64,000 bases of DNA from assembly GCF_000612665.1 (NCBI RefSeq), contig NZ_HG942044.1, forward strand, positions 13,435 to 77,434, given 5' to 3'. The notes below the pieces were generated by a model, which made no database searches, had not been told where the DNA came from, and saw only the letters and a list, made by a program, of their open reading frames with translations. Made by a program: the position numbers and the translations under genes. This DNA is from Neobacillus dielmonensis. Lineage in GTDB: Bacteria; Bacillota; Bacilli; Bacillales; Cytobacillaceae. Numbering within the stretch: the stretch's first letter is position 1; every line of letters starts with the position of its first letter. Shown piece after piece: positions 30,675 through 33,583 of this stretch.

Positions 30675-32342
30675 TTAGACCTCCATGATGATTGGTAATA
30701 TCATCGGTTTGCGTTTAGTTTTTTCATACAGGAAAGGTGCCAATGTGTCAGTGATTTCATTTTTAATCTCGGACCATTGACTAGTTTTCCGCTCCATAAT
30801 TTTATTTAAATGTTTCGTAATGAGAGCTTGGGCATCATTAATTAAATCCCCTGATTCGCGCATATAGACGAAACCTCTTGAAATAATATCTGGACCGGAG
30901 GCAATTTTAAATTCCTTCATATTGATACTTACTACTACAACTACTAAGCCTTCTTCAGAAAGAATTCTACGGTCTCTCAGCACTATATTGCCGATATCAC
31001 CAACTCCACTTCCATCAATATAAACAGAGCCGGATGGAATTTTTCCCGCCACTTGTGCAGTGTTTTCAGAGAGGGCTAACACTTCACCGTTATCCATGAT
31101 AAAGACATTGTCTGGGGCAACACCACAATCAACGGCTAATTTTTTATGCATGATTTGCATCCGATATTCCCCGTGAATCGGCATAAAAAACTTTGGTTTC
31201 ATTAACCGGAGCATTAATTTTTGTTCTTCTTGGCCGCCATGTCCAGAGGTATGGATGTTATTTAACTTTCCATGAATAACCTCTGCACCCGCTCTGAACA
31301 ACATATTAATCGTTCTGCTCACGCTAATGGTATTACCTGGGACTGGTGATGATGAAAAGACCACAGTATCCCCTGGGATAATTTGAATTTGTCTATGGGT
31401 ACCGTTGGCGATCCTTGATAAAGCAGCCATTGGTTCTCCTTGGCTTCCTGTACACAAAATGGTTACTTTATCAACTGGTAACCGATTAATTTGAGAAGCA
31501 TCAACAAAGGTATCCTTTGGTGCTCTTATATAACCTAGGTCAAGACCAATATTAATGGCAGCTTCCATGCTCCGGCCAAATACTGCAATTTTTCGACCAT
31601 TAGCCACTGCAGCCTCTGTTACTTGCTGGAGGCGATGGATGTTCGAAGCGAATGTTGCGAATATAAGCCGTCCGTCAACCTTTCGGAAAATATCTTGAAT
31701 ACTTTCCCCAACTCGTCGTTCGGACATGGTGAAATCCGGAATCTCACTGTTGGTACTGTCAGATAGGAGGCAAAGAACGCCTTCTTTTCCAATCTCAGCC
31801 ATTTTTGTTAAGTTTGCTGGTTCACCTACAGGCGTAAAGTCAAATTTAAAATCTCCTGTGTGGACGATTTGACCTGGAGGTGTCTTAACAACTATACCAT
31901 AGGAATCAGGAATGCTGTGAGTGGTTCGGAAAAAGGAAACAGAGGTCTTACGAAATTTAATTACATCATCTTCTTTAATTTCAATCAATTTGGCGCTTCG
32001 GAGTAGTCCATGCTCCTCTAGTTTATTTTTAATAAGTCCCAGCGCAAGTTTTCCACCGTAAATTGGAATATTGACTTCACGAAGTAAATACGGAATGCCG
32101 CCAATATGGTCTTCATGGCCATGGGTAACAAATAAACCTTTAATTTTTTCTTCATTTTTTACTAGGTATGTGTAATCTGGTATGACATAATCAATCCCTA
32201 AAAGTTCATCCTCAGGAAATTTTATCCCAGCATCAATAAGGATAATTTCATCCTGAAATTGAACCCCATAGGTATTTTTGCCGATTTCGCCCAGGCCACC
32301 CAAGGCAAAAACAGCAGTTTGATCGTTTTTCACAAATTTCAT
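30675..32342 (-). CDS. rnjA: Ribonuclease J1
   Basis: A 555-aa metallo-beta-lactamase/beta-CASP RNase with 5'-3' exo- and endonuclease activity, central to mRNA turnover and 16S rRNA maturation. Zinc motif HGHEDHIGG (near 74-82), further ligands at [16 protein letters not shown] and the beta-CASP segment with [12 protein letters not shown] and [10 protein letters not shown]-terminal domain present. ATG 32342 follows rpoY by six bases, so the two are one operon, as in B. subtilis. Confidence 0.97.
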
Positions 32343-32348
32343 AAATTA

Positions 32349-32561
32349 TCATATCTCCAATACTTTAAAATCTTCATTATTTTGTTGTTCATAATCCAAA
32401 TGTGCTCCCTTTACTTCTTGAACATATTCAACATTAATGCCCAGTTTACCAATTCTTGAAAGGACATCTCTTACTGATTCACCACTAACAAAGAGAGTTT
32501 TGGTTTTTTCTCGTACCGGTACTTCCGTAACACTTTCTTGATAAAATACTTTAAAAATCAT
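32349..32561 (-). CDS. rpoY: RNA polymerase epsilon subunit
   Basis: A 70-aa small RNA polymerase subunit (YkzG/DUF1447). It begins MIFKVFYQES and has EVPVREKTKTLFVSGESVRDVLSRI typical of the family. It binds near the beta/beta' jaw of polymerase; its exact role is debated. Cotranscribed with rnjA. Confidence 0.94.
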   Translation of the reverse strand: MIFKVFYQESVTEVPVREKTKTLFVSGESVRDVLSRIGKLGINVEYVQEVKGAHLDYEQQNNEDFKVLEI

Positions 32562-32626: not shown

Positions 32627-32704
32627 TATTTTCTTAGGAAACCTTTGGTTTTATGGTTAAAAGTATGTAAAAGTGAGCTATTTTTTCAATTTACAATAAT
32701 GAAG

Positions 32705-32729
32705 GAGCCCTTCGCAAGTAGAAGGGCTC
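32705..32729 (-). terminator. Hairpin directly after the 23-aa peptide gene
   Basis: Perfect 9-bp stem GAGCCCTTC/GAAGGGCTC (32705-32713 with 32721-32729), beginning six bases past the peptide stop codon. The T-run is weak, so it may act as a stability element as well as a terminator. Confidence 0.55.
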
Positions 32730-32734
32730 AAAAA

Positions 32735-32806
32735 TTAGGCAATTGATTTTTTTCTAAGCAAATCTTTCCACTGTTGTAAGAGCTTCTTTCTAAGCTTCTT
32801 TAACAT
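32735..32806 (-). CDS. 23-aa amphipathic cationic peptide gene
   Basis: Read on the minus strand: near-consensus Shine-Dalgarno AAGGAGATGATC, ATG at 32806, 23 sense codons, TAA at 32735. The peptide begins MLKKLRKKLLQQW and ends LLRKKSIA, with nine Lys/Arg and one Asp. Leucines and Trp fall at 2, 5, 9, 10, 13, 16 and 17, one face of a helix, with charges on the other. A promoter (32830-32857) lies just upstream and a 9-bp hairpin just downstream, so it looks like a complete monocistronic gene. The composition suggests a membrane-surface peptide, small regulator or antimicrobial/toxin-like peptide; I cannot identify a named family. It is far below usual gene-finding limits. Confidence 0.68.
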   Translation of the reverse strand: MLKKLRKKLLQQWKDLLRKKSIA

Positions 32807-32829
32807 AGTGGATCATCTCCTTACTTATT

Positions 32830-32857
32830 ATTTTAATCAATCTTTGTCCAATGTAAA
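32830..32857 (-). promoter_or_regulatory. Promoter of the 23-aa peptide gene
   Basis: Minus strand: TTTACA (32857-32852), 16-base spacer, TAAAAT (32835-32830). Each hexamer has five of six consensus bases. Predicted transcript start is only a few bases before the Shine-Dalgarno. Confidence 0.65.
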
Positions 32858-32964
32858 GCAACCAAAGGCAGATTCTTGAAAAAAATTTTTTCTCCATATT
32901 TATATAAATATTATATGAAAAAAAAGTTGAAATCCTCATGGATAATCATGGAAAGAAGGCACAG

Positions 32965-33005: not shown

Positions 33006-33560
33006 TTACCTGTTAATAACTATAGCCCCTTCGATTCGTCTAAACGGGTTAGTTTTATCGATATGGTCATAAAACATAATTCCATTTAAATGGTCAATTT
33101 CATGCTGAAAACAAATAGCAGGATAGCCTTTTAAACGGAGTTTAACAGCTTCCCCGTCCAAGTTTGTACCTTTTACAGTGATCCTCGCATATCTAGGAAC
33201 GTAACCAGGTATTACTTCGTCCACCGACAGGCAGCCTTCTCCGGATTCCAAGTATGCTTTTTCAACTGAGTGGCTGATAATCTTTGGATTAAATAGGGCA
33301 TAGCTATAAAGCACACCTTTTTCATCTGTTAAATGGACAGCAATCATGCGTTTTGATACATTAATTTGTGGCGCAGCCAGACCGATGCCTGGCCGTAAGC
33401 CGTAACGTGAGCAAACTTCTGTATCCTGACTGTTGATAACATATTCTAAAAGGCTTTTAAGTATTTGTTTATCCTCATCTGAGGGCGGCATTTCTACTTC
33501 TTCTGCCACTTTTCTAAGCGTAGGGTGACCATCGCGAATAATATCATCCATTGTTATCAT
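33006..33560 (-). CDS. def: Peptide deformylase
   Basis: A 184-aa metal-dependent deformylase that removes the formyl group from nascent proteins. The three motifs are GIGLAAPQ (near 62), EGCLSVDE (near 110) and QHEIDHLNG (near 153), giving Cys, His, His metal ligands and the catalytic Glu. Corresponds to B. subtilis YkrB/DefB, the main enzyme, by sequence start (MITM) and location near rnjA. ATG 33560 with GAGGTG upstream; the frame extending to 33581 lacks support. Confidence 0.96.
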
Positions 33561-33583
33561 GTAACTCACCTCTATAAACAATA

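What the first reader, a model, noticed from the sequence alone, without database searches (positions are those of the whole stretch)
32705..32857. Complete miniature gene for a 23-residue amphipathic, highly basic peptide between rpoY and def
On the minus strand there is a SigA-like promoter (TTTACA-16-TAAAAT), a near-perfect Shine-Dalgarno, ATG, 23 codons, TAA, and a 9-bp hairpin six bases later. The peptide has nine Lys/Arg, one Asp and Leu/Trp on one helical face, so it should lie on membranes. It could be a membrane-active regulator, toxin or antimicrobial-like peptide, or a Fur-regulated basic-protein type small regulator; none can be decided here.
Basis: partly seen in the sequence, partly recalled or inferred. 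Interest (0 to 1): 0.75.

Follow-up and report, generated by a model that had tools for sequence, protein, structure and literature searches.

The report
Conserved 23-residue basic helix microgene
A tiny gene for a 23-residue, strongly basic helical peptide sits beside the genes for an RNA polymerase subunit and RNase J1 and is kept in many families of Bacillus-like bacteria, so it is probably a real, overlooked cell component rather than a toxin or a chance reading frame.

Summary
In detail: promoter-like site, strong Shine-Dalgarno, 23 codons, terminator. It is a real gene. In the window's genus it is 87-96% identical while RpoY is 62-78%. Substitutions are mostly synonymous (pN/pS 0.13). 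A terminator follows in 111 of 168 distinct loci, 1.2 expected from shuffles. No significant Pfam, NCBIfam, PHROGs, PADLOC or PDB relative was found; ten text searches listed no description.

Single copy, fixed position and vertical spread speak against toxin or antimicrobial. No Fur box or Fbp match was found. Best reading: a constitutive housekeeping microprotein that folds as a cationic amphipathic helix on an anionic surface, most likely the inner membrane face. Surface binding is inferred, not shown. It is not obligately tied to RpoY (one genome lost rpoY and kept it) or to sporulation. Whether B. subtilis 168 annotates it could not be checked.

The parts
32852..32857 (-). -35 hexamer TTTACA
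   Evidence: first five bases at least 97% conserved among 35 same-genus loci, the sixth 70-85%
32830..32835 (-). -10 hexamer TAAAAT, spacer 16
   Evidence: at least 97% conserved in the genus; promoter-like score of 9/12 or more in 103 of 168 distinct loci
32810..32822 (-). extended Shine-Dalgarno AAGGAGATGATCC
   Evidence: 16S tail sequence recalled
32735..32806 (-). microprotein ORF MLKKLRKKLLQQWKDLLRKKSIA plus stop
32705..32729 (-). intrinsic terminator, 9-bp stem, T-rich tail
   Evidence: terminators in 111 of 168 distinct loci
32349..32561 (-). rpoY, RNA polymerase epsilon subunit (neighbour)
   Evidence: PF07288 1e-23; PDB 6zca, 6wvk
30675..32342 (-). rnjA, RNase J1 (neighbour)
   Evidence: NF047419 980.6 bits
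32598..32626 (-). putative own promoter of rpoY (ATGAAA-17-TATAAT)
   Evidence: TATAAT in 106 of 158 distinct rpoY upstream regions against 21 shuffled
33006..33581 (-). def, peptide deformylase (upstream neighbour)
   Evidence: TIGR00079 172 bits

Best explanation
A stand-alone housekeeping microgene. Shown by sequence: a conserved 23-residue cationic peptide under purifying selection, with its own promoter-like site, strong RBS and terminator, at a fixed position upstream of rpoY-rnjA. Inferred: it is transcribed constitutively by the SigA polymerase, made in quantity because of the extended SD, and folds into an amphipathic helix when it meets an anionic surface, most likely the inner face of the membrane, where it acts as a peripheral membrane peptide (scaffold or modulator). 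Less likely surfaces are rRNA, mRNA or the transcription and RNA-decay machinery encoded next door.
For: Adjacency 82 of 82 and 28 of 28 paired genomes. pN/pS 0.13 over 84 distinct sequences; entropy at codon positions 1, 2, 3 is 0.45, 0.18, 1.14. Positions 2, 5, 9, 13, 16, 17 hydrophobic in at least 99% of 95 distinct peptides; positions 3, 6, 8 basic in at least 98% with K and R exchanged; net charge +5 to +14, median 8 (the peptides were picked by a profile score, which favours this). Helical moment 0.63 for the window peptide, reached by 1.2% of shuffles; the best angle is 95 degrees in 10 of 11 peptides, 110 in one. SD strength. Terminators in 111 of 168 loci.
Against: No expression, localisation or binding data. 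A basic helix could bind RNA or a protein equally well. In 5 of 11 peptides 5.3-9.5% of shuffles reach the moment. Mean hydrophobicity is low for a membrane binder (-0.41). The gene was not found at rpoY in 2 of 2 f18, 5 of 5 f36, 4 of 5 f15, 1 of 1 f42-g83 and 1 of 5 f45 loci read, so it is dispensable over evolution. 57 of 168 loci show no terminator and 65 of 168 no good promoter by my rules. Some relatives have an ordinary SD: 122 loci range from -21.8 to -10.0, median -18.6.
Confidence: 0.5

Rival explanations
1. The peptide binds nucleic acid or a nucleoprotein (ribosome, RNA polymerase or RNase J1 complex) and is kept beside rpoY-rnjA because it works with them.
For: Net charge +8; adjacency in all 110 paired genomes; neighbours are RNAP epsilon and RNase J1.
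Against: G042 lacks rpoY yet keeps the peptide upstream of rnjA. Genomes without the peptide keep rpoY. A fixed position in a core locus can be mere inheritance. Free K/R exchange and the fixed hydrophobic face do not point to a specific RNA contact.
Confidence: 0.22
2. A leader peptide or attenuator that sets read-through into rpoY-rnjA.
For: Same strand, upstream of rpoY, with a terminator between. A predicted hairpin pairs the RBS with codons 12-14 in 57 of 86 distinct sequences.
Against: rpoY has its own TATAAT in 106 of 158 distinct regions against 21 shuffled. The gap varies from 109 to 649 bp. Conservation runs along the whole peptide rather than a run of stall codons. The hairpin is weakly supported: against leaders from distant relatives mean z -0.32, against shuffled leaders -0.83.
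Confidence: 0.13
3. A dual-function or non-coding small RNA whose ORF is secondary.
For: About 127 nt discrete unit with terminator; fold z -3.34, 1 of 200 shuffles as good.
Against: Third codon positions vary freely while amino acids do not. No Rfam family reaches its gathering score. Without the terminator z falls to -2.48.
Confidence: 0.07
4. A membrane-active toxin, PSM-like or antimicrobial peptide.
For: Composition and amphipathicity.
Against: No second match better than E 0.4 in any of 60 genomes; fixed core position; no plasmid or phage match (where the low-complexity filter may hide it); no plus-strand promoter-like site at 32700-32860 (consensus scan only); no family match.
Confidence: 0.05

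Closest known systems
SpoVM of B. subtilis (recalled)
   Same: About 26 residues, amphipathic helix, stand-alone gene; works by lying on membranes
   Different: SpoVM is sporulation-specific and not at rpoY; no Pfam match; this gene is missing at rpoY in 11 Spo0A-positive genomes and a weak relative is present in Spo0A-negative G480
Fur-regulated basic proteins FbpA/B/C (recalled)
   Same: Small, very basic Bacillus proteins
   Different: No Fur-box-like site near 32820-32900 with up to 3 mismatches; no Pfam match
Staphylococcal PSMs and delta-lysin (recalled)
   Same: 20-26 residue amphipathic helices
   Different: No Pfam match; this one is more basic, single copy and at a core locus
Leader peptides of attenuated operons (recalled)
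   Same: Short ORF, then terminator, upstream of a conserved operon
   Different: Downstream operon has its own promoter-like site; conserved along the whole peptide

Membership tests
Fur-regulated basic proteins | Fur box at the promoter | tested here: not met
   9 window sites with up to 3 mismatches, 8.9 expected, none near the gene; consensus recalled
Fur-regulated basic proteins | sequence match to an Fbp family model | tested here: not met
   No Pfam or NCBIfam hit for the window peptide; of 28 family members one DUF5402 hit, E 0.07, none in NCBIfam. That the libraries hold Fbp models is recalled
SpoVM / sporulation peptides | occurrence follows sporulation genes | tested here: not met
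   Spo0A_C is in all 11 tested genomes whose rpoY region lacks the peptide, and not in G480, which has a weak relative. Most peptide carriers tested do have Spo0A_C
SpoVM / sporulation peptides | binding to curved membrane | not testable with these tools
   needs microscopy
Type I toxin-antitoxin | antisense RNA gene opposite the toxin | tested here: inconclusive
   no plus-strand promoter-like site at 32700-32860, but a consensus scan cannot exclude one
Transcription attenuator leader peptide | downstream genes depend on read-through | tested here: inconclusive
   rpoY has its own TATAAT in 106 of 158 regions; read-through itself untested
Protein-coding microgene | purifying selection on amino acids in relatives | tested here: met
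   pN/pS 0.13 over 84 distinct sequences (sequences picked by peptide similarity, pS near saturation)
Protein-coding microgene | translation in the cell | not testable with these tools
   needs Ribo-seq or mass spectrometry

The most novel reading that the evidence does not exclude
An unannotated, widespread microprotein family of Bacillus-like bacteria that works with RNA polymerase epsilon and RNase J1, for example as a membrane or ribosome tether that links transcription or RNA decay to a surface.
Probability: 0.15. Interest if true: 0.85.

Novelty: new member of a known kind. Interest (0 to 1): 0.58.

Why it matters
A gene this conserved, beside genes studied for decades and present in a near relative of B. 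subtilis (G175, RpoY 94% identical to B. subtilis), is missing from the protein family libraries searched here. It is a cheap, directly testable case: one small deletion in a laboratory strain would show whether a 23-residue peptide has a core function in Bacilli.

Tried and rejected
Rfam: 10 hits, all below gathering scores. Plasmid and phage tblastn and plasmid DNA search: nothing, but the low-complexity filter may mask a lysine-rich query. PDB: only chance-level hits, E 0.27 or worse. Sporulation link rejected. RBS-occluding hairpin: present in the genus and near kin, weak beyond. Promoter-spacer motif as a regulon: one 1-mismatch hit, the gene itself, and four 3-mismatch hits, no more than the backward control. 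Fur box rejected. Structure prediction not tried: the tool needs at least 30 residues. Literature: in ten searches no listing described it; I saw passages of PMC8216469, PMC10433868, PMC13009471, PMC2994887 and PMC10303841 and opened none of the other listed papers. The library holds open-licence papers only and supplements were not read, so an entry in a transcript or small-protein atlas cannot be excluded.

Full report
What is there. On the minus strand, between def and rpoY, the window holds a promoter-like site (TTTACA-16-TAAAAT), a long Shine-Dalgarno, ATG, 23 codons (MLKKLRKKLLQQWKDLLRKKSIA), TAA and a 9-bp terminator. Downstream lie rpoY and rnjA, upstream def. The promoter match alone is not above chance.

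Is it real. A search of 60 relatives found a match at E<=10 in 56 of 60; 45 of 60 reach E<=1e-3, including all 36 of the window's genus (my count). In the other 35 genomes of the genus the peptide is 87-96% identical and RpoY 62-78%. A 16-row profile run on 299 genomes of the order matched in 283 at E<=10, a loose limit that admits chance hits; 16 had none. RpoY is in 297 of the same 299.

Weaker families. I fetched 40 further loci. Nine (L160-L168) came from a family already hit by the profile. Of all 40, 32 have a peptide with profile score 23 or more; the other 8 score below 9. Of the 31 not in that family, 23 have it. In a set of 24 genomes picked because hits were weak, missing or from contrasting families, 23 rpoY loci were read: 10 score 23 or more, 13 do not. 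Eight of those 13, all of family f47, carry a 27-residue basic ORF with a Shine-Dalgarno 173-183 bp upstream of rpoY, and a ninth f47 locus a 30-residue one; whether these are homologous is open. Nothing was found at rpoY in 2 of 2 genomes of f18, 5 of 5 of f36, 4 of 5 of f15, 1 of 1 of genus g83 in f42 and 1 of 5 of f45.

Where it stops. In 299 genomes of the class, 62 match at E<=0.1, 37 of them outside the order. I paired 28 of these 37 with their rpoY places: 28 of 28 adjacent, gaps 109-281 bp, 27 in family f49 and one in f55. The nine left out are weak (E 0.008-0.1). In 20 rpoY regions fetched from the class, 3 have a relative (G340, G480, G426) and 17 none, among them all loci of f62, f56, f51, f72, f78 and f87 read. 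The f82 relative is weak and was seen in two near-identical loci; a third, L290, was not caught by my pattern. In 299 genomes of the phylum, 6 match at E<=0.01; the only one outside the class is weak and inside a 142-residue frame. In G175, whose RpoY is 94% identical to B. subtilis YkzG, the peptide is MLRRLRKKLRRQWGGMLRKKVIA, between rpoY and a divergent ORF that looks like the HAD phosphatase ykrA, with a def-like ORF beyond (the two names by recall). B. subtilis 168 itself could not be read.

Selection. Over 84 distinct coding sequences pS is 0.76 and pN 0.10, ratio 0.13; entropy at codon positions 1, 2, 3 is 0.45, 0.18, 1.14. One other frame is open in 37 of 84, the other in none. The sequences were picked by peptide similarity, which lowers pN, and pS is near saturation. 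Among 35 same-genus loci the -10, SD and start are conserved at 97% or more, the -35 in five of six bases, the terminator stem largely. A terminator lies within 85 nt in 111 of 168 distinct loci, 1.2 expected from mononucleotide shuffles; a promoter score of 9/12 or more in 103 of 168 (mean 8.3 against 6.8 shuffled).

Expression signals. The predicted 16S pairing of the SD is -17.5 kcal/mol, better than all 54 long ORFs of the window (best -17.0) on the same stretch. Over 122 loci it ranges from -21.8 to -10.0, median -18.6, on a stretch two bases longer. This suggests strong translation but does not show it. A hairpin between the RBS and codons 12-14 is predicted in 57 of 86 sequences, but each of its six base pairs holds in only 93 to 125 of 163 distinct loci, and the controls are weak (mean z -0.32 against leaders of distant relatives, -0.83 against shuffled leaders).

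The peptide. In 95 distinct peptides positions 2, 5, 9, 13, 16, 17 are hydrophobic in at least 99%, positions 3, 6, 8 basic in at least 98%, K and R interchange, and 72 of 95 are 23 residues ending in Ala. They were selected by a profile score of 40 or more, so the figures lean upward. The helical moment of the window peptide is 0.63, reached by 1.2% of shuffles; in 5 of 11 peptides 5.3-9.5% of shuffles reach it. That fits a surface-lying helix; which surface is inference.

Function. Not a toxin or antimicrobial by genomic behaviour; no Fur box. Not tied to sporulation: 11 genomes whose rpoY region lacks it have Spo0A_C, and G480, with a weak relative, has none, though most carriers tested do have Spo0A_C. 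Not obligately tied to RpoY: G042 has no RpoY match and no trace of it in the gap, yet keeps the peptide upstream of rnjA. A leader peptide for rpoY is unlikely because rpoY has its own TATAAT (106 of 158 distinct regions, 21 shuffled). I favour a constitutive peripheral-membrane microprotein, with a nucleoprotein partner as the main rival.

Known or not. No significant match in Pfam, NCBIfam, PHROGs, PADLOC or PDB (one DUF5402 hit at E 0.07 in one of 28 members) and no description in ten paper searches (listed in Tried and rejected). The two RoxS papers mention ykrA only as a gene in tables (passages). I file it as a new small-protein family of a known kind.

Noticed in passing
32807-32812 with 32767-32772 (minus strand): UCCACU just before the start codon can pair with AGUGGA of codons 12-14, hiding the RBS in 57 of 86 distinct sequences; little support beyond near kin.
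   Followed up: partly
32836-32851 (minus strand): The first half of the promoter spacer (TTGGACAA in the genus) is as conserved as the hexamers, reason unknown; no second good copy in the assembly.
   Followed up: partly
L289 3904-4237: G042 has lost rpoY between the peptide gene and rnjA; a promoter-like TATACTATAA remains.
   Followed up: partly
L212, L214-L218, L220, L221: Eight loci of family f47 carry a 27-residue basic ORF (such as MKKKLRLLKKFKKWVKLQNNNGKLILN) at the same place, perhaps a diverged or replaced form.
   Followed up: no
L292 2249-2434: Small glycine- and tyrosine-rich ORF (61 aa) near def in the B. subtilis relative G175.
   Followed up: no
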